NCBI GenBank assembly: GCA_905221615.1 | Contig: CAJNDT010001300.1 | Location: 1 to 64,000, forward strand | Length of the DNA: 64,000 nucleotides | Reading direction: 5' to 3' | From: Symbiodinium sp. CCMP2592 | Taxonomy: Eukaryota > Sar > Dinophyceae > Suessiales > Symbiodiniaceae | Shown here: positions 11,301 to 64,000 of the stretch, piece by piece | Numbering within the stretch: position 1 is the stretch's first letter | Layout: the number at the start of each line of letters is the position of its first letter | The notes under the pieces: generated by a model | Seen by the model: only the letters and a program-made list of their open reading frames with translations | Told to the model about the DNA's origin: nothing | The model's database searches: none | Position numbers and translations under genes: made by a program

Positions 11301-12711
11301 AACTCTCATAGGCCTGTGGAGATCCAGTTTGGTCTCCTTGTAAGGAGGCAGACTTAGCTGTATCCTTACCTTTGCCTTTTGCCTTTGCGCCTTTGAAGGA
11401 GCTTCCTTTATCTCCTTTGTCCTTTCCTTTTCCTTTGCCTTTTCCACCTTTTCCTTTTTCCTTTCCTTTACCTTTACCGAAATAGCTGGAATCAGTTGGA
11501 TCATGTTCTGCCTGGTTGGCTCTCCCTTTTCCGCGGTATGACCTAAAACGGCCACGTCCTTTTCGCTTGCCACCCTTTGCTCTTCCCGGTGATCCGGGAC
11601 GCATTCTTGGTCTTCTTCCCTTTTTGAATCTCCTTGCAACGAAGGCCTCATGGTCATCAACTGTCCAGAAGACAGCTTCTTCATCCTCGGCGGCAAGAAA
11701 GCCTTCCTCAAGGGTGTCTTCGTCTTGGAGCCAGAATCCATCGACTCCGTCGTATTCACCCTGATCGAGGATGAGGAAGTTTCGACCTCCGCGTTTGCGG
11801 CGTTGGTCTCTCCTTCCATGGCGGTCCTTCTTGTGAGAAGAGTGCCGAATGTTGGGATCCTGCAGACCAGTTCTGGTCGTTGAGAACTGATCGAACATGG
11901 TCTGCCGTACCACAGGGTACGTGTAGGTCTCAATTCGGTGACCTTGGTTGGTCAATGCTGTTACCAACCTCTCACGTTGCATCTCATTTAGGTCGGACTG
12001 CACTAGGAAGAGGAGAGCTAGGAGATTATCGTTCAGAGGAAACGCTCTTCGATGATTGTCAAGGCGTTCCTTGTTCCATGTTTCGAAATAGCGTGCGGCA
12101 TATGTGTCTCTCTCGGCTGCATCCTGCATGCGCAAGAAGGTTTGGTCTGCCTGCACAGCTTGCATGAAATCTGGATGGGCATCCTCCAGAGCTATCTCTG
12201 GTAAGAGATCCATCCATGAGTTTTTCACGCGCTGTAGCACGATCTCAAACTTGGCAATCCAAGTCACAAAGTCTTGGTTGCCCTTCCATGCCTTGAATAG
12301 GCCGAGGAAACGCCACAGGAAAACGTACTGTTCTCCTTTCACGAAAAATGGACGCATCTTCTTCTTGAAGTAATCTACTCCATCTGGGGCTGCAAGCCTT
12401 TCTCGGTTCAGTGATTCCTTTTGTACTGCGGCCAATCCGGAGAGCCTCGTCTTGAGAGACGGACCTCTTTTGGTGTCATCCAGCGTTGTTATGTCGCACC
12501 AGTCGTCAATCAACTGTTCATACTCAAACCACGAGGTGGTGCCATCATAGGCAGGCGCGATCTTGGGCGTTATGCCTAATGATGCAAGCATGCGGTCAGA
12601 TGTTGCATATGACTGTGCGACATAAGTGGCTGGACCTTGGGAGGTCTCTTCGTTCTCATATCCCCCGGAGGATTGGGAACTGTCGTCGGCTTCGCTATGC
12701 GAGCTCGACAT
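5293..12711 (-). CDS. Copia gag-pol polyprotein, truncated by a frameshift (2472 aa)
   Basis: The start is an ATG at 12711 shared with the intact right copy. Domain order is as in the right copy: Gag-like N-terminus, Lys/Gly-rich basic stretch, aspartic protease with a DSG at about residue 591, HHCC zinc and DDE integrase core, methyltransferase-like domain, Pro-rich linker, RT with HVDD and the start of RNase H. At about 5326 the sense strand reads ACCAAATGTCC where the right copy has ACCACAATGTCC. This one-base loss shifts the frame, adds a short foreign tail and stops at 5293. Outside the break only a handful of residues differ from the right copy (for example GTEVR versus GTEVK, WRLTH versus WNLTH), so the lesion is recent. 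Function of this copy is probably lost because RNase H is split. Confidence 0.9.
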   Translation of the reverse strand: MSSSHSEADDSSQSSGGYENEETSQGPATYVAQSYATSDRMLASLGITPKIAPAYDGTTSWFEYEQLIDDWCDITTLDDTKRGPSLKTRLSGLAAVQKESLNRERLAAPDGVDYFKKKMRPFFVKGEQYVFLWRFLGLFKAWKGNQDFVTWIAKFEIVLQRVKNSWMDLLPEIALEDAHPDFMQAVQADQTFLRMQDAAERDTYAARYFETWNKERLDNHRRAFPLNDNLLALLFLVQSDLNEMQRERLVTALTNQGHRIETYTYPVVRQTMFDQFSTTRTGLQDPNIRHSSHKKDRHGRRDQRRKRGGRNFLILDQGEYDGVDGFWLQDEDTLEEGFLAAEDEEAVFWTVDDHEAFVARRFKKGRRPRMRPGSPGRAKGGKRKGRGRFRSYRGKGRANQAEHDPTDSSYFGKGKGKEKGKGGKGKGKGKDKGDKGSSFKGAKAKGKGKDTAKSASLQGDQTGSPQAYESSTAPSWDSWYEDSYYTDSSWNYAAYDDQTSYTYYASQASRRKTRRKKRRNQAGSSGRGTDPSAHQEPVFNSSVSYVPQVFEPSEGQGVETATAVFPLQHTVLSALTERINLDKNPTFVILDSGCTRAMGSRYAVNRLIKAVKQRAPGMIDFTFSPSNTKFSFADSETALIKERVTLWFNTTPRRDTTIEVLDQGRVPILFSIEQMRNLRMTLECSPTADLATCEAFGLYKTPLPISTNNHLVLDLLGFTSTRKYLPKSGTSFSATETALGAKKPKEERRSYTKIPEGRCPACAGQKKPHTFLKGCDKAPEGAADPPPKGIPGKKKPLPSDPAESSAKKPDPPEPSGDAPEPSEPSEPSSGSRDKPAESSAPHEPPEEERLEVPPAKTKTPKGLKNLLKKTRKYAVKPPVEEKSMVPGADDGTEVRPLESREYPAPGTDSPTGEEIVAEPSPSLPIALRRIHEKLKDPVELYKLHLKHRHMSTDQFKRRTKALQIPKEIYELYDQLVKKCSACQEHVRAPSRAKISGLRSETFGDLTFVDHGELPIPGKNSRLIFLILYDGATNLLTSEVVQDKEEHTTMSIMNDYFEKFQINPKVVVGDQAFMTPKMEAYYNRQNIKPVATGPGTPWPNRAEAAVRLLKHQIKIILQILKDGDPQYNGITMKYGNLVRQACLARNSSITYGGVTPLEMAFGRRPRDVITPENADPNQLTGNPTDTEVTARAIKELANRAYQEARQSDDLRRDLAARLSMTEGPFSLGDKVFYWSEDKSKIGSTGSKHGSWLKGKVISELGGSMVGVDLGTRIVRVNISKLRKNYDITSDVEIPLAPDEETLTSEGSDHASCMVTFDASLQSTDLTVPHQECHWQVTSTGKIDFLELYGGSPRMSHKAALSGLRVGQPVDLRSGLDLEQPQGRSNLLRIIKEQEPTIIVMSPDHSQWSSWYSQWKKGSAKRLSVLKFCESVADHQMKLGRYFVLENPYYSRLWSSPEAKRLFSNRKISYEVCNLQAYGMKDPKGYYESKSSIFMHNLPPQVLTPLQRHSAKTKSPTSPPGDEKGIQGYGLKTKLAQVYPYEFCETFASCLARFLKRDTYASHLSLVTDILGYSGDECLQGLSELLDQEYSLLTANPLKDSKLLQDPKIRSLVARVNSLSSKTELPLHHSKPSPSLDALVSDITRLRSRLLPGSGFEQCTLYRGTFGTVKALTSVTDGVLVFWNKKKPNSTMTCCLPHQVSWNKVHPSTFSGVLFQMTGGKTSPSVRTPPDVIMSDEEVSPSDPSEPMSTNRSRITSDDVSMPEPDQPMPPGTPPSRPPPPIPPPRLPAVSSDEPVAPARAKPRVHPPPRVPSPRRLGGDVSPRSSSERKVSPHKQKSPSQVPTPKPKPKAHPQGPILPLQQDEEDSEEELVPDDPGQPSAPPHTSGSPEPESDAESEDTRYYSDEEGDMVVDEKDWILLTEEQKLCSNTGSFSMPRYMHGGPVDIREVTSRVRSDRTRYKPTKRFRSDIREEYDLLTEEDKALSLSSPRNSANLTQKAQRKEATAKEKREMKKQFDEAKAAEYQSWLDNDVFELVDTRKLGNIRNYVTGRWVLTLKRDKDGNFLKCKARWVLRGFQDRQKDIQQTDSPAASRPGFRLAIQLAANKLWRLTHIDLKTAFLQGEAYDESRDIICQIPPEAGYPPYIAARMKKPAYGLNDAPRRWWNIVDKALLSYGLVPTRADRCTYVLYGKKSATADAEIKKSQPKTMESAIDYLLDPIAGNNAKGRQVHGVVCLHVDDLCMAGDDTFRKAVIESIKKEFAVGSEDTNDIMFVGQRLVWKDATASVPAHISVNQNLAVEALEEIVFDKKLNNEQQCTPQQHTAYRSVLGQINWLQSRTQAHICYRFSRCASKAAKPTIGDIRELNKLVRILKSTEVELRFWPLKGNLRILGYPDASYRNNDDKSSQRAHVIFLAEDRNPKLKGMKQSAAAASSKKNDFSESSIKETSSRGSLVDYESHKITTTKCPQQWQSLTH

Positions 12712-12794
12712 TGTGCTGCCTCTTATCCGCTTGGTTAAGCGTTCGGCGAGGCCGACCGCTGTAGCGGACTTTGGGAGGCGGGCGGCCCTTTCCG

Positions 12795-12807
12795 GGCTCC
12801 GCTACCA
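12795..12807 (-). other. Primer-binding site (initiator-Met tRNA-like)
   Basis: The sense sequence TGGTAGCGGAGCC follows the LTR. It resembles the TGGTATCAGAGC / TGGTAGCAGA type PBS that pairs with the 3' end of initiator methionine tRNA in many copia elements. The same 13 bases occur as the PBS of the unrelated E elements in this window. Confidence 0.75.
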
Positions 12808-12813
12808 GAAAAC

Positions 12814-13063
12814 TGAGCCGATACACCCACAAGGAAATGCTCCTTGTTAGGAGGTGTATGACCAGTTTATTCCCTAAGGATCAAAGGGCAGCGCCCTGCA
12901 CACGGACAGTAGTTGTTTTGTCTTGCTACGCAAGGAGAGCTTGTCTTGTCTCAATATGGTAAAACCACTGTGAGCCAATGGGCAGCGGAATGTATATGTA
13001 TGAGCATGCAGCCATTGCTGTAGGTACCTGTTAGAGCTACCCCTTTAGAGGTTTACGCAAACA
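12814..13063 (-). repeat. 5' LTR of left copia element (approximate inner edge)
   Basis: The LTR starts TG at 13063. The inner end is placed at the CA at 12814-12815 (sense GGCTCA), six bases before the primer-binding site. Only one LTR is in the window, so the inner boundary cannot be checked by LTR-LTR comparison. The matching right-copy LTR is 50086-50335. Confidence 0.7.
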
Positions 13064-49744: not shown

Positions 49745-50085
49745 ACTCCATCCGAAATCTTTCCCTCGTCTTGGCCCATTTACTCCGCTATTTGGTGCAC
49801 AGACACGACACAGTGGAGATGTTGTCACTGCTTGGACATACCTGGAAGCCGTCTTGCAGCTGCTCTACTGATATCCGAACGACCAGAGTTGCTTCTGTGC
49901 AAGCATGAAGACCTCCAACCCCGATGACTCACAACGGGAAGTCTTAAAGCCGCACGAGGAGGCTTTGAGATGGGCCAGAGGGGCCCATGAACAGTGTGCC
50001 AATTCCACTCTTTTCGCCTTAAGCTCGAACCACTGCCATGTGTGCAGCCTGCCAGGATTCTGCCTCTTCATGAGGATGGGCCCCA
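49745..50085. other. Unassigned sequence between DIRS-like remnant and right copia LTR
   Basis: About 340 bp. Short open frames on both strands (63-73 codons) overlap each other and resemble nothing I know. No repeat signature is present. It is the only part of the core without an element assignment. Confidence 0.5.
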
Positions 50086-50335
50086 TGTTTGCGTAAACCT
50101 CTAAAGGGGTAGCTCTAACAGGTACCTACAGCAATGGCTGCATGCTCATACATATACATTCCGCTGCCCATTGGCTCACAGTGGTTTTACCATATTGAGA
50201 CAAGACAAGCTCTCCTTGCGTAGCAAGACAAAACAACTACTGTCCGTGTGCAGGGCGCTGCCCTTTGATCCTTAGGGAATAAACTGGTCATACACCTCCT
50301 AACAAGGAGCATTTCCTTGTGGGTGTATCGGCTCA
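50086..50335 (+). repeat. 5' LTR of right copia element (approximate inner edge)
   Basis: Starts TG at 50086. The inner end is set at GGCTCA, 50330-50335, six bases before the PBS. It contains CCCATTGGCTCA at about 50167-50178, similar to the 3' part of the dinoflagellate spliced leader. Confidence 0.7.
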
Positions 50336-50341
50336 GTTTTC

Positions 50342-50354
50342 TGGTAGCGGAGCC
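50342..50354 (+). other. Primer-binding site (initiator-Met tRNA-like)
   Basis: TGGTAGCGGAGCC, then CGG. Same 13-mer as in the left copia copy and in E1-E4. Confidence 0.75.
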
Positions 50355-50437
50355 CGGAAAGGGCCGCCCGCCTCCCAAAGTCCGCTACAGCGGTCGGCCT
50401 CGCCGAACGCTTAACCAAGCGGATAAGAGGCAGCACA

Positions 50438-53400
50438 ATGTCGAGCTCGCATAGCGAAGCCGACGACAGTTCCCAATCCTCCGGGGGATATGAGAACGAA
50501 GAGACCTCCCAAGGTCCAGCCACTTATGTCGCACAGTCATATGCAACATCTGACCGCATGCTTGCATCATTAGGCATAACGCCCAAGATCGCGCCTGCCT
50601 ATGATGGCACCACCTCGTGGTTTGAGTATGAACAGTTGATTGACGACTGGTGCGACATAACAACGCTGGATGACACCAAAAGAGGTCCGTCTCTCAAGAC
50701 GAGGCTCTCCGGATTGGCCGCAGTACAAAAGGAATCACTGAACCGAGAAAGGCTTGCAGCCCCAGATGGAGTAGATTACTTCAAGAAGAAGATGCGTCCA
50801 TTTTTCGTGAAAGGAGAACAGTACGTTTTCCTGTGGCGTTTCCTCGGCCTATTCAAGGCATGGAAGGGCAACCAAGACTTTGTGACTTGGATTGCCAAGT
50901 TTGAGATCGTGCTACAGCGCGTGAAAAACTCATGGATGGATCTCTTACCAGAGATAGCTCTGGAGGATGCCCATCCAGATTTCATGCAAGCTGTGCAGGC
51001 AGACCAAACCTTCTTGCGCATGCAGGATGCAGCCGAGAGAGACACATATGCCGCACGCTATTTCGAAACATGGAACAAGGAACGCCTTGACAATCATCGA
51101 AGAGCGTTTCCTCTGAACGATAATCTCCTAGCTCTCCTCTTCCTAGTGCAGTCCGACCTAAATGAGATGCAACGTGAGAGGTTGGTAACAGCATTGACCA
51201 ACCAAGGTCACCGAATTGAGACCTACACGTACCCTGTGGTACGGCAGACCATGTTCGATCAGTTCTCAACGACCAGAACTGGTCTGCAGGATCCCAACAT
51301 TCGGCACTCTTCTCACAAGAAGGACCGCCATGGAAGGAGAGACCAACGCCGTAAACGCGGAGGTCGAAACTTCCTCATCCTCGATCAGGGTGAATACGAT
51401 GGAGTCGATGGATTCTGGCTCCAAGACGAAGACACCCTTGAGGAAGGCTTTCTTGCCGCCGAGGATGAAGAAGCTGTCTTCTGGACAGTTGATGACCATG
51501 AGGCCTTCGTTGCAAGGAGATTCAAAAAGGGAAGAAGACCAAGAATGCGTCCCGGATCACCGGGAAGAGCAAAGGGTGGCAAGCGAAAAGGACGTGGCCG
51601 TTTTAGGTCATACCGCGGAAAAGGGAGAGCCAACCAGGCAGAACATGATCCAACTGATTCCAGCTATTTCGGTAAAGGTAAAGGAAAGGAAAAAGGAAAA
51701 GGTGGAAAAGGCAAAGGAAAAGGAAAGGACAAAGGAGATAAAGGAAGCTCCTTCAAAGGCGCAAAGGCAAAAGGCAAAGGTAAGGATACAGCTAAGTCTG
51801 CCTCCTTACAAGGAGACCAAACTGGATCTCCACAGGCCTATGAGAGTTCCACCGCACCGAGCTGGGATTCATGGTATGAGGACAGTTATTATACTGACTC
51901 CAGTTGGAATTATGCCGCTTATGACGATCAAACGTCTTATACATACTATGCATCACAAGCCTCACGAAGAAAAACACGGAGAAAGAAGAGAAGAAATCAA
52001 GCAGGATCATCAGGTAGAGGCACAGATCCGAGCGCGCACCAAGAACCCGTGTTCAACTCATCAGTGAGTTACGTGCCCCAGGTCTTTGAACCATCCGAGG
52101 GGCAAGGTGTTGAAACTGCAACAGCGGTGTTTCCGTTGCAGCACACCGTCCTATCTGCTCTCACAGAGCGGATCAATCTTGATAAGAACCCTACCTTTGT
52201 CATACTTGACTCAGGTTGTACTAGGGCTATGGGTTCCCGCTATGCGGTGAACAGGCTTATCAAGGCCGTGAAGCAACGTGCCCCAGGCATGATTGATTTC
52301 ACTTTCTCACCTTCGAACACGAAGTTCTCTTTCGCAGATAGTGAAACAGCTCTTATCAAGGAGCGTGTAACTCTATGGTTCAACACAACTCCAAGAAGAG
52401 ATACAACCATAGAAGTTCTGGATCAGGGGAGAGTTCCCATTTTGTTCTCCATCGAACAGATGAGGAATCTAAGAATGACCCTCGAGTGTAGTCCCACAGC
52501 TGACCTAGCAACGTGTGAAGCTTTCGGTTTGTACAAAACCCCCCTTCCGATTAGTACCAATAACCATTTGGTATTGGACCTTCTAGGCTTCACTTCCACC
52601 AGGAAGTATCTCCCTAAGTCAGGTACGTCGTTCAGTGCGACGGAGACTGCTCTAGGAGCTAAGAAGCCAAAGGAAGAAAGAAGATCTTATACTAAGATCC
52701 CGGAAGGTCGCTGTCCAGCCTGCGCAGGACAGAAAAAGCCTCATACGTTCCTCAAAGGTTGCGACAAAGCACCTGAAGGAGCAGCTGATCCACCACCGAA
52801 GGGCATTCCAGGTAAGAAGAAGCCTCTTCCATCTGATCCGGCAGAATCATCTGCCAAGAAACCTGATCCACCAGAACCATCTGGTGATGCTCCTGAGCCT
52901 TCCGAACCATCGGAACCATCATCAGGCTCTAGAGACAAACCTGCAGAATCATCTGCACCGCACGAACCTCCAGAAGAAGAAAGACTTGAGGTTCCACCTG
53001 CGAAGACAAAGACTCCAAAGGGTCTTAAAAACCTTCTGAAGAAAACCCGCAAATATGCGGTCAAACCTCCTGTTGAGGAGAAGTCTATGGTCCCAGGAGC
53101 TGATGACGGGACGGAGGTAAAGCCGCTTGAGTCAAGAGAATACCCGGCTCCTGGTACAGACTCACCTACAGGTGAAGAGATTGTCGCAGAACCATCGCCA
53201 TCTCTTCCCATTGCTCTTCGCAGGATTCATGAGAAGCTTAAGGACCCTGTAGAACTCTATAAGCTTCACCTTAAGCACCGTCATATGAGTACGGATCAGT
53301 TCAAGCGACGCACGAAAGCCTTACAGATCCCAAAGGAGATATATGAGCTATATGACCAACTGGTCAAAAAGTGTTCAGCCTGTCAGGAACACGTGAGAGC

Positions 53401-56400
53401 TCCTTCAAGAGCGAAGATTTCCGGTTTAAGATCAGAGACTTTCGGTGATCTCACCTTCGTAGATCACGGTGAGCTTCCAATTCCCGGCAAGAATAGTCGC
53501 TTAATATTTCTTATTCTCTATGACGGAGCAACAAACCTGTTGACTTCCGAAGTAGTCCAGGATAAAGAAGAGCATACTACAATGTCGATTATGAATGACT
53601 ACTTTGAGAAATTTCAGATCAACCCAAAGGTTGTAGTTGGAGATCAAGCATTCATGACTCCAAAAATGGAGGCTTATTACAATCGGCAGAATATCAAGCC
53701 TGTAGCAACAGGACCTGGAACACCATGGCCCAACAGGGCCGAAGCTGCTGTAAGATTGCTGAAGCATCAGATTAAGATCATACTTCAGATCCTGAAGGAT
53801 GGTGACCCGCAGTATAACGGAATCACCATGAAGTATGGCAACCTCGTTCGACAAGCATGTTTGGCAAGAAACTCTTCGATTACCTATGGAGGAGTTACTC
53901 CTTTAGAAATGGCCTTTGGTAGGCGTCCTCGAGATGTTATAACACCAGAGAACGCTGATCCCAATCAGTTGACAGGTAATCCAACTGATACGGAAGTCAC
54001 TGCGAGAGCCATTAAGGAGCTTGCCAACAGGGCTTACCAAGAGGCACGCCAATCTGATGATCTGCGCAGAGATCTTGCGGCCAGACTGTCAATGACCGAA
54101 GGACCTTTCTCTTTGGGAGATAAGGTTTTCTACTGGTCAGAAGATAAGTCTAAGATTGGATCAACTGGGTCCAAACATGGATCTTGGCTAAAAGGAAAGG
54201 TGATCTCCGAACTCGGAGGATCCATGGTAGGTGTGGATCTTGGAACACGCATCGTCCGCGTTAATATCTCAAAACTGAGGAAAAATTATGACATAACATC
54301 TGATGTGGAGATTCCTCTCGCGCCTGATGAGGAAACTCTGACGTCAGAAGGTTCTGACCACGCAAGTTGCATGGTCACCTTTGATGCTTCCCTGCAGTCG
54401 ACAGACCTAACGGTTCCGCATCAAGAGTGTCACTGGCAGGTCACCAGCACTGGGAAGATTGACTTCCTAGAACTCTACGGTGGATCTCCCCGTATGAGTC
54501 ACAAGGCTGCCCTGTCAGGTCTGCGAGTAGGTCAGCCAGTCGACTTGCGTAGTGGTCTAGATCTTGAGCAACCGCAAGGTCGCTCCAATCTTCTTAGGAT
54601 CATCAAGGAACAAGAACCTACTATTATTGTTATGTCACCCGATCACTCTCAGTGGTCTAGCTGGTACTCACAGTGGAAGAAAGGCTCTGCCAAGAGACTT
54701 TCTGTTTTAAAATTCTGTGAATCGGTCGCAGACCACCAAATGAAGCTCGGACGTTACTTTGTTCTTGAGAACCCATACTACAGCAGGCTCTGGTCTTCAC
54801 CAGAAGCAAAACGCCTGTTTTCCAACCGCAAGATCAGCTATGAGGTCTGTAACCTACAAGCCTATGGCATGAAAGATCCAAAAGGATACTATGAATCGAA
54901 ATCCTCGATTTTCATGCACAACCTGCCACCGCAGGTTCTAACTCCTCTCCAGAGGCATTCTGCCAAAACGAAATCTCCAACATCTCCACCAGGAGACGAA
55001 AAGGGTATTCAAGGCTACGGTCTTAAAACGAAACTCGCACAAGTGTATCCTTATGAATTCTGTGAGACCTTTGCCTCGTGTTTGGCAAGATTCCTGAAGA
55101 GAGATACATATGCATCTCATCTTTCTTTAGTCACAGACATACTAGGATACTCTGGAGATGAATGCCTCCAGGGACTTTCGGAACTTCTTGACCAAGAGTA
55201 TTCACTTTTGACAGCAAATCCTCTCAAGGATTCCAAACTCCTGCAAGATCCGAAAATCAGATCACTTGTTGCTAGAGTAAATTCCTTATCGAGTAAAACT
55301 GAATTACCATTGCATCATTCCAAACCATCACCGTCCCTTGATGCCTTGGTGTCAGACATTACTCGCCTTAGATCAAGACTCTTACCAGGGTCTGGTTTCG
55401 AACAGTGTACTCTATACAGAGGTACATTTGGAACAGTCAAAGCACTCACCAGTGTAACTGATGGCGTTCTTGTCTTCTGGAACAAGAAGAAGCCCAATTC
55501 GACTATGACGTGTTGCTTGCCGCACCAGGTTTCCTGGAATAAAGTACACCCATCAACCTTCTCGGGGGTGCTCTTCCAGATGACAGGCGGCAAGACTTCA
55601 CCGTCCGTGCGAACACCGCCGGATGTTATCATGTCGGACGAAGAGGTTTCGCCGTCAGACCCGTCAGAACCCATGAGCACTAATCGCTCACGGATCACAT
55701 CTGACGATGTCTCTATGCCGGAACCAGATCAGCCGATGCCTCCCGGCACGCCGCCGTCGCGTCCTCCTCCTCCCATACCTCCACCGCGACTACCGGCCGT
55801 TTCCTCCGATGAGCCCGTGGCTCCTGCTCGGGCTAAGCCTCGCGTGCATCCGCCTCCTCGCGTTCCGTCTCCTCGGCGTCTGGGGGGTGATGTGTCGCCA
55901 AGGTCTTCATCGGAAAGGAAAGTTTCGCCGCACAAACAGAAATCACCTTCACAGGTGCCGACACCAAAACCTAAACCGAAGGCACATCCACAGGGACCCA
56001 TTCTTCCGTTACAACAAGATGAAGAAGATTCTGAAGAAGAACTGGTCCCGGACGACCCCGGACAACCGTCCGCTCCTCCTCACACCTCTGGTTCACCAGA
56101 ACCGGAGAGCGATGCCGAGTCAGAAGACACAAGGTATTACTCTGATGAGGAAGGTGACCTGGTCGTAGATGAGAAGGACTGGATCCTTCTCACAGAAGAA
56201 CAGAAACTGTGCAGTAACACAGGTTCTTTCTCCATGCCTCGGTACATGCATGGCGGACCCGTAGACATCAGAGAGGTAACATCAAGAGTGAGGTCAGACC
56301 GAACACGGTATAAACCCACCAAAAGGTTCCGATCTGACATCCGTGAAGAGTATGATCTTCTCACGGAAGAGGACAAGGCCTTATCCCTAAGTTCCCCCAG

Positions 56401-58324
56401 GAACTCAGCAAATCTGACCCAGAAGGCACAACGGAAGGAGGCAACCGCCAAGGAAAAGCGTGAGATGAAGAAACAGTTTGATGAAGCGAAAGCAGCAGAA
56501 TATCAGAGCTGGCTAGACAATGATGTCTTTGAGCTCGTCGATACACGGAAACTCGGAAACATCCGAAATTATGTCACTGGTCGATGGGTCCTGACTCTAA
56601 AAAGAGATAAGGACGGAAACTTCCTTAAGTGCAAGGCCCGATGGGTCCTAAGAGGTTTCCAGGATCGACAAAAGGACATACAGCAAACTGATAGTCCTGC
56701 TGCGAGTCGCCCAGGTTTCCGCTTAGCGATTCAACTAGCAGCTAACAAGCTGTGGAATCTGACACACATCGACCTAAAGACTGCTTTTCTGCAGGGTGAA
56801 GCCTATGATGAGTCGAGAGACATAATCTGTCAGATTCCTCCTGAAGCAGGTTATCCTCCCTACATTGCAGCGAGGATGAAGAAACCCGCTTATGGACTTA
56901 ACGATGCACCTCGAAGATGGTGGAACATCGTTGACAAGGCACTCCTGTCTTACGGCTTGGTGCCAACCCGTGCGGATCGCTGTACATATGTTTTGTATGG
57001 TAAGAAGTCTGCAACAGCAGATGCTGAGCTCAAGAAGTCTCAGCCAAAGACCATGGAATCAGCGATTGACTATCTCCTAGATCCCATAGCAGGCAACAAT
57101 GCCAAGGGTAGACAGGTACATGGAGTAGTCTGTTTACATGTAGATGACCTGTGCATGGCCGGTGATGACACCTTTCGTAAGGCCGTGATTGAATCGATCA
57201 AAAAGGAGTTTGCAGTCGGTTCTGAAGACACGAACGATATTATGTTTGTAGGACAGAGATTAGTCTGGAAGGATGCTACAGCATCGGTACCAGCACATAT
57301 CTCAGTAAATCAGAACCTAGCTGTTGAAGCTCTAGAGGAAATTGTTTTTGATAAGAAGCTCAACAATGAGCAACAATGCACACCACAGCAGCACACTGCT
57401 TTCAGAAGTGTTTTAGGACAGATCAACTGGCTACAAAGCCGGACTCAAGCTCACATCTGTTATCGCTTCAGTCGGTGTGCGAGTAAGGCTGCCAAGCCTA
57501 CTATCGGTGATATTCGAGAATTGAACAAGCTTGTTAGGATTTTGAAGTCTACTGAAGTAGAACTGCGTTTTTGGCCGCTGAAAGGAAATCTCAGAATCCT
57601 CGGTTACCCTGATGCTTCCTACAGGAACAATGATGACAAATCATCTCAGAGAGCACATGTTATTTTCCTTGCTGAAGATCGAAATCCAAAGCTAAAGGGA
57701 ATGAAACAATCAGCAGCAGCTGCTTCTTCCAAGAAGAACGATTTCTCTGAATCCTCTATTAAGGAAACATCCTCGAGAGGTAGCCTGGTGGATTATGAGT
57801 CTCACAAGATTACGACAACCACAATGTCCACAACAGTGGCAGAGCTTAACGCACTGATGCGTTGCTTTGGTACTTGCCTGTTCCTCAAGGGACTTTGGGC
57901 AGATCTCTCATCAGAGACCGTACCCATACATATCAGAACAGATGCGAACAATCTTGTGACAACAGCAGGCACGACACACCTTCCAGAGCAGAAGGAAACT
58001 CACCACCTCATTCAGATGCTTCGTAAGGAATCCAACTCTGGATCTTTAGATGACCTAGCTCATGTAAGCTCGAAGTACTGCCTAGCTGATGCATTAACAA
58101 AGCACTCGGCGCAACCTGATGAGCTTATCAAGGCTCTGGAAACAGGGAATTTACCAGAAACAGACATTCATCCACCCTTCCGTGAACTTCTTCAACATAA
58201 AGCTTTCACTGTTCGGTGGATCATAGACAATCTCAAGAATGCCGCCACAGCGGTAGCCTTCCTTGGAATTGATATCTCAACAGAGATTTACCGATTATTT
58301 TACTGCCAAGGAATATGGTGGTAG
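50438..58324 (+). CDS. Intact copia gag-pol polyprotein (2628 aa)
   Basis: The ATG at 50438 follows the PBS by about 80 nt. Visible domains: Gag-like 1-300 (SWFEYEQLIDDW); Lys/Gly-rich nucleic-acid-binding stretch about 400-460 in place of a zinc knuckle; aspartic protease with D591-S-G; integrase with HHCC zinc (H944/H949...C979, C982) and catalytic D1009, D1069, E1102; a SAM-methyltransferase-like domain about 1339-1460 (FLELYGGS; MSPDHSQWS at 1399-1407; VLENP about 1445); Pro/Ser-rich linker about 1690-1850; RT with H-V-D2236-D2237; RNase H with D2392, E2469 and D2502. Integrase before RT is the copia order. Gag and pol are fused in one frame, with no frameshift or stop between them. The methyltransferase-like insertion is not part of a standard copia pol. 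Confidence 0.93.
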   Translation: MSSSHSEADDSSQSSGGYENEETSQGPATYVAQSYATSDRMLASLGITPKIAPAYDGTTSWFEYEQLIDDWCDITTLDDTKRGPSLKTRLSGLAAVQKESLNRERLAAPDGVDYFKKKMRPFFVKGEQYVFLWRFLGLFKAWKGNQDFVTWIAKFEIVLQRVKNSWMDLLPEIALEDAHPDFMQAVQADQTFLRMQDAAERDTYAARYFETWNKERLDNHRRAFPLNDNLLALLFLVQSDLNEMQRERLVTALTNQGHRIETYTYPVVRQTMFDQFSTTRTGLQDPNIRHSSHKKDRHGRRDQRRKRGGRNFLILDQGEYDGVDGFWLQDEDTLEEGFLAAEDEEAVFWTVDDHEAFVARRFKKGRRPRMRPGSPGRAKGGKRKGRGRFRSYRGKGRANQAEHDPTDSSYFGKGKGKEKGKGGKGKGKGKDKGDKGSSFKGAKAKGKGKDTAKSASLQGDQTGSPQAYESSTAPSWDSWYEDSYYTDSSWNYAAYDDQTSYTYYASQASRRKTRRKKRRNQAGSSGRGTDPSAHQEPVFNSSVSYVPQVFEPSEGQGVETATAVFPLQHTVLSALTERINLDKNPTFVILDSGCTRAMGSRYAVNRLIKAVKQRAPGMIDFTFSPSNTKFSFADSETALIKERVTLWFNTTPRRDTTIEVLDQGRVPILFSIEQMRNLRMTLECSPTADLATCEAFGLYKTPLPISTNNHLVLDLLGFTSTRKYLPKSGTSFSATETALGAKKPKEERRSYTKIPEGRCPACAGQKKPHTFLKGCDKAPEGAADPPPKGIPGKKKPLPSDPAESSAKKPDPPEPSGDAPEPSEPSEPSSGSRDKPAESSAPHEPPEEERLEVPPAKTKTPKGLKNLLKKTRKYAVKPPVEEKSMVPGADDGTEVKPLESREYPAPGTDSPTGEEIVAEPSPSLPIALRRIHEKLKDPVELYKLHLKHRHMSTDQFKRRTKALQIPKEIYELYDQLVKKCSACQEHVRAPSRAKISGLRSETFGDLTFVDHGELPIPGKNSRLIFLILYDGATNLLTSEVVQDKEEHTTMSIMNDYFEKFQINPKVVVGDQAFMTPKMEAYYNRQNIKPVATGPGTPWPNRAEAAVRLLKHQIKIILQILKDGDPQYNGITMKYGNLVRQACLARNSSITYGGVTPLEMAFGRRPRDVITPENADPNQLTGNPTDTEVTARAIKELANRAYQEARQSDDLRRDLAARLSMTEGPFSLGDKVFYWSEDKSKIGSTGSKHGSWLKGKVISELGGSMVGVDLGTRIVRVNISKLRKNYDITSDVEIPLAPDEETLTSEGSDHASCMVTFDASLQSTDLTVPHQECHWQVTSTGKIDFLELYGGSPRMSHKAALSGLRVGQPVDLRSGLDLEQPQGRSNLLRIIKEQEPTIIVMSPDHSQWSSWYSQWKKGSAKRLSVLKFCESVADHQMKLGRYFVLENPYYSRLWSSPEAKRLFSNRKISYEVCNLQAYGMKDPKGYYESKSSIFMHNLPPQVLTPLQRHSAKTKSPTSPPGDEKGIQGYGLKTKLAQVYPYEFCETFASCLARFLKRDTYASHLSLVTDILGYSGDECLQGLSELLDQEYSLLTANPLKDSKLLQDPKIRSLVARVNSLSSKTELPLHHSKPSPSLDALVSDITRLRSRLLPGSGFEQCTLYRGTFGTVKALTSVTDGVLVFWNKKKPNSTMTCCLPHQVSWNKVHPSTFSGVLFQMTGGKTSPSVRTPPDVIMSDEEVSPSDPSEPMSTNRSRITSDDVSMPEPDQPMPPGTPPSRPPPPIPPPRLPAVSSDEPVAPARAKPRVHPPPRVPSPRRLGGDVSPRSSSERKVSPHKQKSPSQVPTPKPKPKAHPQGPILPLQQDEEDSEEELVPDDPGQPSAPPHTSGSPEPESDAESEDTRYYSDEEGDLVVDEKDWILLTEEQKLCSNTGSFSMPRYMHGGPVDIREVTSRVRSDRTRYKPTKRFRSDIREEYDLLTEEDKALSLSSPRNSANLTQKAQRKEATAKEKREMKKQFDEAKAAEYQSWLDNDVFELVDTRKLGNIRNYVTGRWVLTLKRDKDGNFLKCKARWVLRGFQDRQKDIQQTDSPAASRPGFRLAIQLAANKLWNLTHIDLKTAFLQGEAYDESRDIICQIPPEAGYPPYIAARMKKPAYGLNDAPRRWWNIVDKALLSYGLVPTRADRCTYVLYGKKSATADAELKKSQPKTMESAIDYLLDPIAGNNAKGRQVHGVVCLHVDDLCMAGDDTFRKAVIESIKKEFAVGSEDTNDIMFVGQRLVWKDATASVPAHISVNQNLAVEALEEIVFDKKLNNEQQCTPQQHTAFRSVLGQINWLQSRTQAHICYRFSRCASKAAKPTIGDIRELNKLVRILKSTEVELRFWPLKGNLRILGYPDASYRNNDDKSSQRAHVIFLAEDRNPKLKGMKQSAAAASSKKNDFSESSIKETSSRGSLVDYESHKITTTTMSTTVAELNALMRCFGTCLFLKGLWADLSSETVPIHIRTDANNLVTTAGTTHLPEQKETHHLIQMLRKESNSGSLDDLAHVSSKYCLADALTKHSAQPDELIKALETGNLPETDIHPPFRELLQHKAFTVRWIIDNLKNAATAVAFLGIDISTEIYRLFYCQGIWW

Positions 58325-59207
58325 TCTCGTTTGCTGGTAGCACAACCATGTGCTGGATTTTCTATTTAGACTGTTTTCCGTCTAAAAGAAAATTTGTGTC
58401 TGCGAGCTGCGTTTTCATTAAGATCGGACATGTTCATGAGAATTATATGTTCTGTATCATCCGCAGCCGCTTTCAGCCTCGAGCCTCACAGCAATCAGCC
58501 TTTCGGGCTAACCAAGCGTTCCTGATCCTGTTTGGTCATTGTGCCGTAATGAGCACACGATCAAACTTCCGTAGCCGTGATGGACACGCCCTACCCAGGG
58601 CAGTGCAGGCGTACCATGAGCGACATCCACACATGGATAGCTCGTACCCCGAGTCTCGTCGGGAAGCATCACGTCGAAACACCGAACACGGTGGACACCG
58701 AATTCACAAACGTGAGAAAAATCACGAGCCTCAATTCATCATCATGGGTCACCAACAGGTGTTCAATCCGCATCCAAGAGATCTTGCTCAATTGATCTCA
58801 CGATATGGCCATGCGAGTGGAGCAAGGCTCACTCTAAACTCCAGACATGGAGTCAGGCTCTACGAAGGAGTCCTTCAAGGACCATGGGACAACAGTCCCC
58901 TTGTATACTGGGATAACAACGTCGGTAATCACGCTCGTGATCCACGCCAGTTCTGTACGATGCTTGCACATCACCTTCAGACAGGCCTCCCACCGGAGGT
59001 AGAACAATGTGTGAGCCTTGATGGATCCGGAGAATATGACTATTCCTCCTCAGTGCCAAAACTGGCAGATGTAACAGGTCTCTCACCAGAGATGTGCTTC
59101 CACATTCTTTCCAAGACCAACAGAGTCGGAAGGTGGTTGGCACACTCAACAAGACACCTTCAGAACCAGCGCCCAGATCTCTTTGCTGGCCAACACAATT
59201 ATCTTTG
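58315..59207 (+). pseudogene. Copia ORF2 N-terminal part, up to a 1-bp deletion
   Basis: ATG 58315 overlaps the gag-pol stop (58322-58324) in ATGGTGGTAG; an alternative ATG is at 58549 (MSTRSNF). The product contains the Tpt1-like N-lobe candidate (FCTMLAHHLQTGL, SPEMCFHILSKTNRVGRW, LFAGQHNY). At about 59206 the right copy reads TATCTTTGGAC where the left has TATCTTCTGGAC. The loss of one base sends translation into a wrong frame that stops at 59382. Confidence 0.78.
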
Positions 59208-62200
59208 GACATGTTCAAGTTGGCCGATGCAGAGCTCGCACAGTATACACCACAAGAGATCGCGCTTGGTGTCCTCCTCAACACTAAGTCTAGGTTTGTG
59301 GTCACCATGGTTTATAACAAAGATGGCAAGGCCGAAACCACAGATGCCGCCGTTAACATCCCACCGGATGCAAATGTGTTGACCATGAGCAAAATTTTCC
59401 TTTCGGCAGTGGGAGGACACGGTTCACGACGAACTCTACCAAGAGCTGAAGAACCAGATCCTGAAGAAGAGAGACCAAGGTCACACATGACCATCTCAGA
59501 CTTCATGGCAACGGGGAGCAATCCAGTGCAGTCCCGTGCACAGCGTCTCTCCACTAACGCGCCGAGGCCCGTCGGCATGGAGGATTTTGTTCGACAGAAC
59601 AACCCTTGTTACATCATGCATGCCACGGACCTACAGGCATTATCCTCAATCCTGAGGCACGGTCTGGTACCATCAAACCTCCTAGCGCAGGTGGTTACAG
59701 CACCAGATTTCCAAGCTCTCGTGAATGAAAACAGTCGTTCCAACAGGGACACTGTTCAGTTCTCAACGCTAAACCTGGCGAATCCCAATCCGACCATGTT
59801 GCGTGCCAACAAGGCACTGCTTCTGGTATTCGATGCAAATAACGTAGTGAACGAAGTCACAAACCTGTGGCAGTCGCAAGTAGGGATGTTTGCTACACCA
59901 GATGTAGTGCATGCCCGTACTCTTAGCGCCGTATTCGCACCCTCTGAAACACTCTGGGTATCATCGCAATACGATGAGCTCAAGAGCATCGGACCATGGT
60001 GGGCAGACCATTGCTCCGAACAGATGCCGTCAGCGACTTACGAGTCGAAGAAATGGTGCGCAAATTACGGCCGAGAAATCGAATCGGCACTTCGAAAAGT
60101 GGCAAGGCGAAATCTGCCACCAGAGCCTCCCAAGGCTAGATCTTCTCACAAGAAGTCTTTTTCTCTGCCAAAGACAGAGGCTGACACAGCTCCAAACCTG
60201 GAGCAAACCGCTTCTGCAGGTGAGGTACCTCCGAAAACGGAGACTACTGCAAAGGAGATCCATCCGAGATCCAAGCTCGCCCGGCAGGCCGAGGCTGACA
60301 AGGATCCGGACAGTCTTATGGGACAGCTCTGGAACTCCGACGGCACCAGAAGCGCCACCGAAGTTCTTAAGATAACGACAGGTCACAAACCTCCAGAACC
60401 TGTTCAGGATACTTCCGCCAACGTAGTTCCTCCCAAGGAAGAATCTTCTGGAACAGAGACGGAACCTGAGGAACCGGATCCTAACCAGGATCGTGACGAA
60501 GAATCAGACGATGAGTCGGCATCAAGCGAAAAGAGCTCAAAATCTTCGTCATCCTCAGAACTCCGAGTTGATGTTAATCCGTCTCACAAGACGAACTCTG
60601 CACCTGCAGCGTCGGAGGAGAAGAAAGAATCTCCCACGGAAGAGATCACAGAGAAACTTAAGAAGGTCAAACTTGACCAACCAAAGCCTGAAGCAGAATA
60701 TGTTCAGAGTTCAGACGAAGAGCCACAGAAACCAAAATCTCCTAAAAAGGAGAAGGAGAAATTCCTAGTTCTCTTCGATCCTGAAACAGAAAGTTATTAT
60801 CGAGTCAACAGAAGCAAGCTCAACCTCGAATACGAGGAACCTGCTGATGAGGAAGATCTCGTAAGAGAACATGAGCGCATCAGCGCTCGACTTCGAGAAA
60901 ATCGCAAGCACCGAATCTCGAAGTCATCGTCTAACCCGGCTATGCAACAGGAAATGAAAGAGAGAATCTGGGTTAGTCGATGGAATCGAAAAATCCGAAG
61001 TCCACTCATGATCAAGGATTCTGAGGCTCCTGACGAAGAGGAGTGGGACAGACCCAGAGATTCGGCATCTTCCTCCTCTGCACCTCCTACCAAGGAGAGA
61101 TTTGTAGGAGTACGCAGGACAGCCATGAGTCTTAACCAAAGGATACGGCTGATGACACGACCAGATAATCCTCTCTGCGATCTTTGCAACCAGCCTACAG
61201 GCTATTTTTGCTATTCCTGTGGTACGATTGTATGTGCAGACTGTCGACTTACCCCACAGGGTAAACAACAGATGTGCGAGTGCGTCTTGCCAATCGATTG
61301 CCTCGAAACCTCTAAAGTGTCAGCAGGAATGACCTCAGAAGAGCGTCAGGTTTTATACGAGGCCATCCTCACACATGAGGACGTAGATTTGGCAGTCCAG
61401 AAAATCAACATGTATTGCGACCACGCAAGGAATTCGTTCATGAGAGCCCATCCAGGCGTTGATCCATGTAGCTTTGATGATATTAGGAATAAACCTCCTA
61501 ATACTTACACCAGCTCCACAGAGGCTCCAACCCTGGAGGAATACAAGAGCATCAACAAGGGTCACATCAATATCAAGGACTCCAGAACAAGCCACCCGGC
61601 GTCTTTTCTCTCTCTTACTGGCCACGAAGACAAACTGGTGCTCGACGCACATTACGAGATAGTTCGTAATAGGATGGCCGGTGTTAACGAGAAGAGAGAA
61701 TACATAGAGGGCTCAAACCCAGACAGCGTATCACTAAGGCTAGTGGTATGTAACTGGGGAAATATGGATCGAGCGCCGGTGCCAGCAGGGAATCCCAAAA
61801 AGAAACTCAAACCTGAGAAGGGATTCGATTACCACCCTCTTATTGACATGTGCTTCAACAATTCAGCACATATTACCCTCGTACTCGAGGCAGGAGCACT
61901 TGCGTCAAAGTATTCGATCGCAACCATGCGACAACATGAATACAGAGGGATGCTAATCCATTCTCCTCCCAAGGAGCCTGAGGCACCCTCAATGTATATT
62001 GGAGTCAAGGGTGACCCAACAACAGACATCTCTCTCGTCCACCACTTCTACCGTCACCGAACAATGAAGCCTAAGGCTGGTGGTCCCAAGAAGCGACTGT
62101 GGGCATGCCACGGTGCGGTATGCCGCCTCACCTTTGGGTACCACAGTACCATCCCGGAGGCAAAAGAATGGGTCCACCCATATTCCGGCCAGAGGATGAC

Positions 62201-64000
62201 GAGAGATGAGTTCATGAAGATTATCGGATATGACCCTCTCAAGGGTAAAAATCCTGACAAGGATGGACCCACTGATGGCTCTTACCTCTCACCAGAGGCG
62301 TGTCTGACAATGTCGGACCTCGACCCTTCGCCGGTTCTCTGTGAATGGAACGGCCATGTCGAGGGTGATGAGCCACCAGAGGAAGACTTTGAGTCATACG
62401 CAGAGATCTTCTCACAAGAAGCATCAAACGATCTTGACGAGATGTGGTGTACAAAAGGGCCTTACAAGGTCATCACCATCGCGATCGTCCATTTCAACTC
62501 ATACATGACTCATAAGGAAGAACAGAGGCGCGAACTGGTGAACGCGTTCCTCAACGAGGTTCTCCCTTTCAAACCGGATGTAATTGCGGGGGATCTCAAT
62601 AATATTGCGTCGAGGCTCACCTTAAAAGGTGGAGACGTTCACCCGCGAAACGGTTTGTTTTCTCTATACCTGGAGAAGAAACTTGCAGCATTCAACAGAA
62701 TAGCAGGAAGGCACTCACAAGTGCGACACCTCTGCTTGAACAACTCTGACCAGCACAGACTGGCACGTGCAGATCGTCTACCGCCGGACCCGGCGAAGAA
62801 AGTTGCTGACCTCGACTGTATCAACAGTTATATCCTTGACTGGAGTAAAACGCCGCACACGGCGTCACCTAGTCCAAGAGATGCTACACCTGCCGCCGAA
62901 AGAACATACTGGGAACGAGTCTCAGATATGTGGCAGGACATGAACAGAAACAGGGATATCGATATCCGTCTGTTTGTCTCAGTCAAGCAGTACTATTCAA
63001 CTTTTTCTAACCTTGACCTGTGGTTGAGTCCCTCTGACAAAGATTGGCACAGCCCTTTGGGCTTCACGATACAACCAATCCTTACAAAAGGGAAACACAA
63101 CCGGTCAGATGCCCAGGTTCAGAAGATCGCTGACAAGCGACAGGCTTACAAGCAGCGTAATGCTGAATACTGGGATTACAAAGACTCATTTATGTATTCA
63201 TCTGGCAACAGCTGGTACGACAGACAGCAACCACAAGGTAGCTATCACAGATATGGAAGATTCTGGGAAAGGCCACAGCCTGAACGTCCCAGCGAGCCTG
63301 AAGGCTCTCCTCCAAGAAGGAGCCAGGCATCATCGTCCTCTTCACAACAAGATCTACCAAGATCGAGATCCAGACCTCAGAGAGCCAGTCTTGTTGACAA
63401 GCTCAACATGTCTTTAGAGGAACTGGACACACTTGAGGAACAACAAGAGGAAGAACATTTGATCCGTGAGATGGAGAGTGTTATTGAAGAGCACGAACGA
63501 GAAACATCAAACCTGATGTCGGCTCAAAGAGATGAAGACGAACAGGAGGAAGAATCTTCCAGTCGCAGAAGAAGAAGGAAGTCATCGCGACCGCCGTCTG
63601 CTCCGAGCAGCAAGGCACTCCGAACAGCTGCCACAGCAGCAGGGTTGTCGAACTGGTTCGGACACCCTAATCAAGGCGGTGCAAAGGGAGAGTCTATCAA
63701 GACTGATGAACCTTCACTTCCAAACTCACTAACCAGTGAGCAAGACTTCTCCGTCTTCAGCATCGCGTGGAAGGTGTTTCTGCTGCTAATGGGCCTACAC
63801 TGGATGTGGAAGCAGCTCACCAGGGCTCCCATCAGATGTATGGACCGCCAACAATCAAATGCAAAAGCAGCAGCGAAACGACCAACACCATTTCTCGAAC
63901 CCGAGAATGAACCACAGACGCGTGAACCTTTAGGACCCAACAGGGTCAATTCTGGAGAAACAACGGATTTGCGACCTGTGTGGCACACTTCGCGAAGCGA
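59208..64000 (+). pseudogene. Copia ORF2 remainder (frame restored after the deletion), open to window end
   Basis: From 59208 the ORF2 frame is open for 1597 codons to the window edge; I read it through without meeting a stop. In order: ART/Tpt1-like C-lobe (YIMHATD...SILRHGLVP about 59611-59680; VFDANN...GMFATPDVV about 59827-59905); acidic linker; zinc-finger-like cysteines at about 61168-61285 (CDLC, CYSC, CADC, CEC); EEP-like motifs CNWGNM (about 61750), LVLEAGAL (about 61876), VHFNSY (about 62488), GDLNN (about 62589) and SPSDKDWHSPLG (about 63027); Arg/Ser/Glu-rich region; and a hydrophobic stretch FSVFSIAWKVFLLLMGLHW at about 63748-63804 that may span a membrane. The part after 63148 has no counterpart in the left copy only because that copy leaves the window. 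Confidence 0.72.

What the first reader, a model, noticed from the sequence alone, without database searches (positions are those of the whole stretch)
50086..64000. Copia element is studded with perfect 5-7-bp hairpins whose loops are 4 nt and mostly NNCA-like
Reading the sense strand I found 38 perfect hairpins with stem at least 5 and loop exactly 4. Examples (hairpin, loop): 50688-50701 CTCA; 51550-51565 ATCA; 52840-52855 ATCA; 52869-52886 ACCA (7-bp stem); 52900-52915 ACCA; 52942-52957 ATCA; 53047-53060 AATA; 53727-53740 AACA; 54205-54218 AACT; 54920-54937 CACC (7-bp stem); 54983-54996 ACCA; 57848-57863 CTGA; 58274-58287 AACA; 58838-58853 GACA; 58886-58899 AACA; 60580-60593 CACA; 60873-60888 ATCA; 61249-61264 CACA; 62233-62246 CTCA; 62251-62264 GACA; 62711-62724 CACA; 62850-62865 CACA; 63725-63740 AACC; 63934-63947 AACA. 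Chance gives about 14 such sites in 13.9 kb (1/1024 per position) and about 3 with stem 6 or more; I found 13 of the latter without an exhaustive search. In 31 of 38 loops the third base is C and in 24 the fourth is A, a bias chance hairpins would not show, and it is strand-specific. They run through gag, IN, RNase H and ORF2. Short stems with a fixed 4-nt loop recall coat-protein operator hairpins of RNA phages (ANYA loops) and the dispersed packaging signals proposed for small RNA viruses. A Gag- or ORF2-bound dispersed RNA code is my inference. I know of no description of this in LTR retrotransposons.
Basis: partly seen in the sequence, partly recalled or inferred. Interest (0 to 1): 0.92.

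Follow-up and report, generated by a model that had tools for sequence, protein, structure and literature searches.

The report
Hairpin code in Copia retrotransposon RNA
A jumping gene, probably from a coral-symbiont alga, carries over a hundred near-identical tiny RNA hairpins inside its protein-coding sequence, far more than chance allows, which probably act as repeated docking sites for a protein that handles its RNA.

Summary
Maximal hairpins number 102 against 11.2 in shuffles (z=28); loop 2 apart, other lengths lie near chance. Shuffles keeping protein, codons and dinucleotides do not explain it. The unit is precise: 5-bp stem (sixth pair at chance), loop mostly [A/C][A/C/U]C[A/C], C-G favoured at pair 2. 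NNCA loops: 60 of 119 sense, 4 of 119 antisense. Near-miss sites carry G·U but not A·C in pairs 1-4 beyond chance, so the sense RNA folds. A second copy shows the same; the array between has about three such sites per unit; two distant relatives show a weak tetraloop excess, one with only a hint of the motif. Best explanation: dispersed binding sites for an RNA-binding protein, most likely Gag. Binder and function are inferred. Compensatory change could not be shown: the copies are 99.2% identical and the host genome could not be searched.

The parts
50086..64000 (+). Copia-type LTR retrotransposon, plus-strand copy (5' LTR starts TG at 50086; 3' end beyond the window); carries 119 perfect stem>=5 / loop-4 hairpins
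1..13063 (-). Second copy of the same element (99.2% identical to 50081-63148), antiparallel; 91 maximal loop-4 hairpins vs 10.3 in shuffles, 62 with NNC[AC] loops vs 1.5
50342..50354 (+). Candidate primer-binding site TGGTAGCGGAGCC (6 matches in the window: one in each Copia copy, four in the array between)
   Evidence: the role as PBS is inferred
50438..58324 (+). ORF1 polyprotein (Gag to RNase H) from its first ATG; 48 maximal loop-4 hairpins vs 10.6 in codon+dinucleotide shuffles
   Evidence: RVT_2 E=1e-16
50438..51397 (+). [not shown]
   Evidence: binding inferred
58273..63998 (+). ORF2 (frame changes once in this copy, near 59205); 41 maximal loop-4 hairpins vs 4.4 in codon+dinucleotide shuffles of its 59215-63998 part
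50940..50955 (+). hairpin, 6-bp stem, loop TACC
51550..51565 (+). hairpin, 6-bp stem, loop ATCA
52592..52607 (+). hairpin, 6-bp stem, loop ACCA
52840..52855 (+). hairpin, 6-bp stem, loop ATCA
52869..52886 (+). hairpin, 7-bp stem, loop ACCA
52900..52915 (+). hairpin, 6-bp stem, loop ACCA
52942..52957 (+). hairpin, 6-bp stem, loop ATCA
54920..54937 (+). hairpin, 7-bp stem, loop CACC
55217..55232 (+). hairpin, 6-bp stem, loop CTCA
56390..56405 (+). hairpin, 6-bp stem, loop CCCA
58339..58354 (+). hairpin, 6-bp stem, loop ACCA
58838..58853 (+). hairpin, 6-bp stem, loop GACA
59587..59602 (+). hairpin, 6-bp stem, loop GACA
60189..60204 (+). hairpin, 6-bp stem, loop AACC
60477..60492 (+). hairpin, 6-bp stem, loop AACC
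60873..60888 (+). hairpin, 6-bp stem, loop ATCA
61249..61264 (+). hairpin, 6-bp stem, loop CACA
61366..61381 (+). hairpin, 6-bp stem, loop CACA
62850..62865 (+). hairpin, 6-bp stem, loop CACA
63504..63519 (+). hairpin, 6-bp stem, loop AACC
63725..63740 (+). hairpin, 6-bp stem, loop AACC
63892..63907 (+). hairpin, 6-bp stem, loop AACC. The rows here are the 22 with stem>=6 and an NNC[AC] loop; the other 97 of the 119 are listed

Best explanation
The element's sense RNA carries a selected, dispersed code of small hairpins: a 5-bp stem of almost free sequence (C-G favoured next to the closing pair) topped by a 4-nt loop mostly of the form [A/C][A/C/U]C[A/C], about one per 115 nt, placed inside the ORFs where the protein tolerates it. 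A protein most likely reads each hairpin through its unpaired loop bases. The best candidate is the element's own Gag, which would use the array as dispersed packaging and assembly sites, giving its genomic RNA many cooperative contacts inside the virus-like particle. Shown by computation: the hairpins, their geometry, the loop rule, the strand, the near-absence elsewhere in the window, and the avoidance of conserved residues. Inferred: that selection maintains them, that a protein reads them, that the protein is Gag, and that the outcome is packaging.
For: 102 maximal hairpins vs 11.2; loop NNC[AC] with 5 perfect pairs 79 vs 2.16. Stem length ends at 5: the sixth pair is Watson-Crick in 22 of 79, as by chance. 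Pair 2 is C-G in 54 of 79 and an A stands two bases 5' of the stem in 41 of 79 (p=3e-5, 184 base-and-position tests made). Sites with one defect in pairs 1-4: G-U 14 vs 3.4 (0 of 200 shuffles reach it), A-C 7 vs 4.5 (32 of 200), other 20 vs 16.4 (41 of 200); this points to sense RNA and to few decayed sites. Local folding: 79% of the 102 stems have mean pair probability above 0.5 in the sense strand, 63% in the antisense. Hairpin codons lie at residues variable in relatives (71 conserved columns vs 109.8 expected, 0 of 1000 circular shifts as low). Loops are poor in G and U, so they can hardly pair with each other. MS2, the model for such codes, gives 13 vs 2.7 (z 6.7) on the same test, the element z 27. 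Gag's N-terminal domain gives a helical model whose eight best aligned PDB entries are retroelement or retroviral capsids.
Against: No binding or packaging data. Between the two copies, stems are not detectably protected (5 differences vs 7.6 expected; in the 3' part 7 vs 9.1 for all stems and 6 vs 6.4 for NNC[AC] hairpins) and no change is compensatory. The nearest homologue (P0001) differs as often at hairpin codons (37/228) as beside them (143/941). Over all five pairs A-C (12 vs 5.6) and other mismatches (37 vs 20.6) are also in excess, mostly at pair 5. Relatives lack the loop rule (L001) or show a hint (L002). Capsid fold matches are below the tool's caution level for helical models. [quoted passage not shown] In a plant satellite virus, proposed dispersed signals had no discernible significance for selective packaging in vivo (PMC6475782, abstract read).
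Confidence: 0.5

Rival explanations
1. The same selected RNA hairpin code, but read by another protein: the ORF2 product or a host RNA-binding protein, for export, stability, translation control or escape from silencing.
For: All evidence for a protein-read code applies. ORF2 has a sub-threshold B-box-like zinc-finger match, and ORF2 relatives P0121 and P0123 have sub-threshold Tpt1/KptA matches. Density is as high in ORF2 as in gag.
Against: More than 100 sites per RNA suits an abundant, stoichiometric protein such as Gag better than a regulator (inference). No recognised RNA hairpin-binding domain was found in ORF2 by Pfam; the model of part of it is unusable (pLDDT 36).
Confidence: 0.27
2. 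The hairpins are selected for RNA structure as such (compaction, nuclease resistance, pausing or template switching of reverse transcriptase), not for recognition of the loop.
For: Weak tetraloop-hairpin excess in relatives L001 ORF1 (16 vs 6.3) and L002 ORF1 (17 vs 8.8) and in one ORF of the array (6 vs 1.5). Slight excess of loops 3, 5 and 6 at stem>=4 in the element itself (z 2.8-3.3). The two copies look mosaic, as recombination would make them.
Against: Pure structure does not require exactly 5 bp, only 4-nt loops, C at loop position 3 in 86 of 119, or C-G at pair 2; loops of 3 and 5-8 nt with stem>=5 stay within about 2 sd of shuffles.
Confidence: 0.1
3. A mutational or copying process makes the hairpins (snap-back or template switching of the reverse transcriptase, or a nucleic-acid-modifying enzyme that acts on hairpins), with no benefit to the element.
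For: Within the window the strong signal is confined to this family. The stems show no detectable constraint between copies. Avoidance of conserved residues would follow from protein constraint alone.
Against: Template switching would be expected to give stems and loops of many lengths, not 5 and 4. It does not explain the loop rule, the preferred second pair, or the excess of G-U alone among near-misses in pairs 1-4.
Confidence: 0.08
4. By-product of amino-acid, codon or dinucleotide composition.
For: Codon shuffles keep a slightly raised loop-4 mean in ORF1 (9.3 vs 6.3 in dinucleotide shuffles).
Against: Shuffles keeping protein, codon counts and dinucleotides reach at most 21 (ORF1) and 10 (ORF2) against 48 and 41 observed.
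Confidence: 0.01
5. Kissing-loop sites for RNA dimerisation.
For: Ty1 RNA is packaged as a dimer and kissing loops are modelled for it (PMC5454406, title and start of abstract in a search listing only).
Against: Loops are mostly A and C (G 10, 9, 7, 6 and T 17, 20, 9, 8 of 119 at positions 1-4), so they can hardly pair with each other. A search for complementary partner loops elsewhere in the RNA was not made.
Confidence: 0.02

Closest known systems
Dispersed packaging signals of small ssRNA viruses, MS2 phage in particular
   Same: Many short dispersed stem-loops within coding RNA sharing a degenerate loop motif; MS2 loop motif (x)xYA (PMC6281560, passages) fits 62 of 119 loops here.
   Different: LTR retrotransposon, not an RNA virus; plain 5-bp stem without the internal A bulge; stronger statistical signal than MS2 on the same test, in a longer sequence (z 27 vs 6.7); no binding data.
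Ty1/Copia RNA packaging (yeast Ty1 5' region)
   Same: Same superfamily by RVT_2, capsid-like Gag model; Gag with a basic, Lys-rich tail.
   Different: In Ty1 the 5' terminus harbours the packaging sequences (PMC5454406, start of abstract in search listing); here sites run through all ORFs.
Large-scale RNA structure in viral genomes (genome-scale ordered RNA structure; recalled)
   Same: Excess of stable structure across the coding RNA.
   Different: Here the excess is one hairpin type with a sequence rule in the loop; other loop lengths are near chance at stem>=5 apart from loop 2.

Membership tests
Ty1/Copia LTR retrotransposon (Pseudoviridae) | Copia-type reverse transcriptase (RVT_2) | tested here: met
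   PF07727 E=1e-16, residues 2058-2217 of ORF1
Ty1/Copia LTR retrotransposon (Pseudoviridae) | Integrase upstream of reverse transcriptase in one polyprotein | tested here: inconclusive
   Conserved block at residues 964-1187 precedes RT in alignment A1, read as integrase by eye; Pfam gave no integrase hit
Ty1/Copia LTR retrotransposon (Pseudoviridae) | Paired LTRs | tested here: inconclusive
   Both copies start with the same TG end (50086 and 13063), but both run off the window before a 3' LTR
Ty1/Copia LTR retrotransposon (Pseudoviridae) | Retroelement capsid fold in Gag | tested here: inconclusive
   [not shown]
MS2-type coat-protein operator | 4-nt loop with pyrimidine at 3 and A at 4 | tested here: met
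   NNYA in 62 of 119 loops sense, 11 of 119 antisense
MS2-type coat-protein operator | A bulged on the 5' side of the stem, two pairs below the loop | tested here: not met
   5' bulge after pair 2 with NNC[AC] loop: 1 vs 1.96 expected; with any loop 17 vs 13.8; the exact bulge position is recalled
Dispersed packaging signals | Multiple dispersed stem-loops with a shared loop motif | tested here: met
Dispersed packaging signals | Bound by the capsid protein and promoting assembly | not testable with these tools
   No binding, cross-linking or assembly data
Dispersed packaging signals | Conserved or compensated among relatives | tested here: inconclusive
   Of 95 maximal hairpins in the plus copy's shared part 91 are kept in the other copy; no compensatory change; of two distant relatives one lacks the motif and one shows a hint

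The most novel reading that the evidence does not exclude
A eukaryotic LTR retrotransposon writes a private protein-binding code into its whole coding RNA: more than 100 interchangeable 14-nt hairpin operators per genome, kept near-perfect by selection on the active lineage and different or absent in related families, so that each family's Gag recognises its own RNA along the whole genome rather than at one 5' packaging site.
Probability: 0.4. Interest if true: 0.92.

Novelty: new variant of a known kind. Interest (0 to 1): 0.82.

Why it matters
Dispersed packaging signals in RNA viruses are hard to detect by sequence (PMC4751978, passages) and are disputed (PMC6475782, abstract). Here is a case where the signal is plain in one sequence (z about 28) with a defined geometry and loop rule, in a retrotransposon. 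It gives a simple reagent (a 14-nt hairpin) for binding tests, a way to look for similar codes in other elements by loop-length profile, and an example of heavy RNA-level constraint overlapping protein coding.

Tried and rejected
Chance, codon usage and dinucleotide bias were rejected by three kinds of shuffle. Host-wide property: the stretch 13069-50080 between the copies, mostly a repeated array of another LTR element, has NNC[AC] hairpins 13 vs 3.5; these come from about three sites in a near-identical unit counted several times, and its loops show no common rule. Its tetraloop excess (70 vs 31.3) and loop-5 excess (57 vs 31.4) are likewise inflated by repetition; one array ORF (36516-37856) still has 6 vs 1.5 tetraloop hairpins (largest of 200 shuffles 5), while two others have none to speak of (3 vs 1.5, 3 vs 3.3). 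Binding site on double-stranded DNA is unlikely: stems have almost no fixed sequence, only pairing. Longer stem or MS2-like bulge: no continuation of pairing beyond pair 5 and no excess of a bulge after pair 2; bulges after pair 4 with NNC[AC] loops are enriched (5' side 7 vs 1.6, 3' side 9 vs 1.56), consistent with some 4-bp stems. Regular spacing: mean 116 nt, near exponential (KS p=0.03, at least partly because hairpins cannot overlap). A stem excess of loop 10 (stem>=6: 11 vs 2.6) stays unexplained. Faster protein change at hairpins: hairpin codons are less conserved in relatives (mean 0.31 vs 0.40 elsewhere), but where relatives agree at 80% the element departs no more often at hairpin codons (12/71) than elsewhere (155/874). 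L002 hint of the motif: whole contig NNC[AC] 6 vs 1.53, ORF1 4 vs 1.47 with 32 of 500 shuffles as high; not firm. Rfam: no match at gathering threshold in 50000-64000. Viral contigs: five scans, no relatives. Genome contigs: one scan empty, one gave L001 and L002. The ORF2 fragment model and the Pfam search of the IN-RT insert led nowhere. Paper searches that showed no description of hairpin or tetraloop codes in LTR retrotransposons (listings with titles and starts of abstracts seen; two searches listed 15 of 17 and 8 of 9); the library holds open-licence papers only.


Full report
What is there. The window holds two copies of one Copia-type LTR retrotransposon, back to back: plus strand from 50086 to beyond 64000, and minus strand from 13063 to beyond 1, 99.2% identical over 13,069 aligned columns. 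ORF1 encodes a polyprotein with a Copia reverse transcriptase (RVT_2 E=1e-16); Gag, integrase and RNase H parts are read by eye from the alignment. ORF2 is a long protein of unknown function. ORF2 relatives are named from Symbiodinium sp. CCMP2592 and S. microadriaticum, and an RT relative from S. natans, so the host is probably a Symbiodinium; this is inferred.

The observation. All 24 listed hairpins are right. The full count is 119 perfect hairpins with stem>=5 and loop 4 in 50086-64000, 30 of them with stem>=6. Counting only maximal hairpins (loop ends unpaired), 102 are seen against 11.2 in 100 dinucleotide shuffles, largest 20. At stem>=5, loop lengths 0, 1, 3 and 5-12 lie within 2 sd of the shuffles; loop 2 (33 vs 11.7) is raised, at least partly because a loop-4 hairpin whose loop ends can pair is counted there. 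At stem>=4 loops 3, 5 and 6 are slightly raised (z 2.8-3.3), and at stem>=6 loop 10 (11 vs 2.6). Codon shuffles and shuffles keeping protein, codon counts and dinucleotides (ORF1 48 vs 10.6, ORF2 41 vs 4.4) do not reproduce the loop-4 excess. The other copy gives 91 vs 10.3, but it is not an independent sample.

The unit. For loops NNC[AC] the number of perfect stems by exact length is 24, 27, 57, 20 and 2 for 3, 4, 5, 6 and 7 bp; the sixth pair is Watson-Crick in 22 of 79, about the chance rate. So the unit is a 5-bp stem and a 4-nt loop. Loop letters: position 1 A/C 92 of 119, position 2 A/C 90, position 3 C 86, position 4 A 75 and C 30. Of the 79 with NNC[AC] loops, pair 2 is C-G in 54, pair 1 U-A in 32, and an A stands two bases 5' of the stem in 41 (background 0.29; p=3e-5, 184 base-and-position tests made). 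79 such hairpins are found against 2.16 expected; 2019 NNC[AC] tetramers exist in the stretch. 33 of the 119 have a base other than C at loop position 3, so the rule is not absolute.

Which strand and which nucleic acid. NNCA loops are 60 of 119 on the sense strand and 4 of 119 on the antisense. Sites with one imperfect pair among pairs 1-4 show G-U 14 against 3.4 expected (0 of 200 shuffles), A-C 7 against 4.5 (32 of 200) and other mismatches 20 against 16.4 (41 of 200). A-C on this strand is G-U on the other, so the folding strand is the sense RNA. Over all five pairs A-C (12 vs 5.6) and other mismatches (37 vs 20.6) also rise, because the fifth pair is partly dispensable. The scarcity of broken sites in pairs 1-4 says the set was largely intact in the recent ancestor. 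Local folding puts 79% of the 102 stems above 0.5 mean pair probability in the sense strand and 63% in the antisense.

Selection or drift. Hairpin codons sit at residues that vary among relatives: 71 columns conserved at 80% against 109.8 for circularly shifted hairpins, 0 of 1000 as low; mean conservation 0.31 against 0.40 elsewhere and 0.38 close by. That fits a code fitted around protein constraint, but a mutational process filtered by protein constraint would look alike. Against selection at single sites: between the two copies 5 of 105 differences lie in the 945 stem bases of maximal hairpins (7.6 expected) and none is compensatory; four hairpins are lost in the minus copy and none is lost only in the plus copy. 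In the more divergent 3' part 7 differences fall in stems against 9.1 expected, and 6 against 6.4 for NNC[AC] hairpins alone. dN/dS between the copies is 0.36. The closest homologue P0001 differs at 37/228 hairpin codons and 143/941 neighbouring ones. With more than 100 redundant sites, selection on each may be weak; these tests have little power, but they are not positive.

Relatives. The only DNA of relatives that I could reach came from two contigs filed under archaeal MAGs: L001 (48% identity) and L002 (50%). Both show a weak excess of 5-bp tetraloop hairpins in ORF1 (16 vs 6.3, largest of 200 shuffles 14; 17 vs 8.8, largest 17). The NNC[AC] rule is absent in L001 ORF1 (1 vs 0.72) and at most hinted at in L002 (ORF1 4 vs 1.47, 32 of 500 shuffles as high; whole contig 6 vs 1.53). 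The array of another LTR element between the copies has about three NNC[AC] sites per unit and no common loop rule. So the strong code with its loop rule belongs, as far as seen, to this lineage.

Mechanism. A fixed stem length with free sequence and a fixed-size loop with a sequence rule is what one expects of a protein that grips a hairpin and reads its loop. MS2 phage is the model: its packaging stem-loops are described as having (x)xYA in the loop and an A in the 5' bulge (PMC6281560, passages), and up to 60 might lie within its genome (PMC4751978, passages). On my test MS2 scores 13 vs 2.7, the element 102 vs 10.9. The MS2 bulge is not enriched here, so the hairpin is not an MS2 operator; it may work like one. 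Gag is the best candidate reader: its N-terminal domain gives a model whose best matches are retroelement capsids (below the caution level for helical models), it is expected to be abundant (recalled for such elements), and it carries a Lys/Gly-rich tail. I put 0.5 on Gag-read packaging or assembly sites, 0.27 on another protein, and the rest on structure-only, mutational and other readings. Cautions: Ty1 Gag is reported to bind RNA with low specificity, though it prefers Psi RNA in competition (PMC8396678, passages), and proposed dispersed signals of STNV-1 had no discernible significance for selective packaging in vivo (PMC6475782, abstract).

Novelty. No paper describing such a code in an LTR retrotransposon showed up in the listings of nine searches of an open-licence library. 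I file it as a new variant of a known kind, dispersed RNA recognition hairpins, in a new setting.

Noticed in passing
13079-46712: Tandem array of another LTR-type element on the minus strand, period about 7.48 kb: near-identical units from about 19.7 kb on, the last one partial, and one diverged unit at 13.1-20.6 kb; four matches to the same 13-nt TGGTAGCGGAGCC as in the Copia copies. Two of its ORFs gave no Pfam hit.
   Followed up: partly
50081-63148 vs 13068-1: The two Copia copies look mosaic: 9 differences in the first 5.9 kb, 94 in the last 7.1 kb, as if recombination joined two sublineages.
   Followed up: partly
57822 and 59205 (plus-copy coordinates): Each copy has one single-base frame change relative to the other, the minus copy in ORF1 and the plus copy in ORF2; neither copy has both frames open as far as the window shows.
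   Followed up: no
54443-55042: Conserved insert between integrase and RT with LELF.GSARLS, APxCxxWS and ENP motifs that by eye resembles a degenerate methyltransferase fold; Pfam gave no such match. PMC5890265 (passages) says that the Copia superfamily in Symbiodinium lacks any DNMT domain.
   Followed up: partly
59040-63998: ORF2 has a sub-threshold B-box zinc-finger match and an IMHATDL...ILRHGL stretch like part of P0042, near its sub-threshold Tpt1/KptA match.
   Followed up: partly
L001 and L002 (whole loci): Two contigs filed under Euryarchaeota MAGs (NYST01000022.1, WTIT01000146.1) encode dinoflagellate-type Copia polyproteins, probably contamination.
   Followed up: partly
50081-64000: Excess of hairpins with 10-nt loop and stem>=6 (11 vs 2.6), no common loop seen; unexplained.
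   Followed up: partly
positions 17 and -11 relative to the loop start of the 79 NNC[AC] hairpins: T is enriched at +17 (30 of 79, p=1e-3) and depleted at -11 (7 of 79, p=4e-3); these may be chance given the 184 tests made.
   Followed up: no
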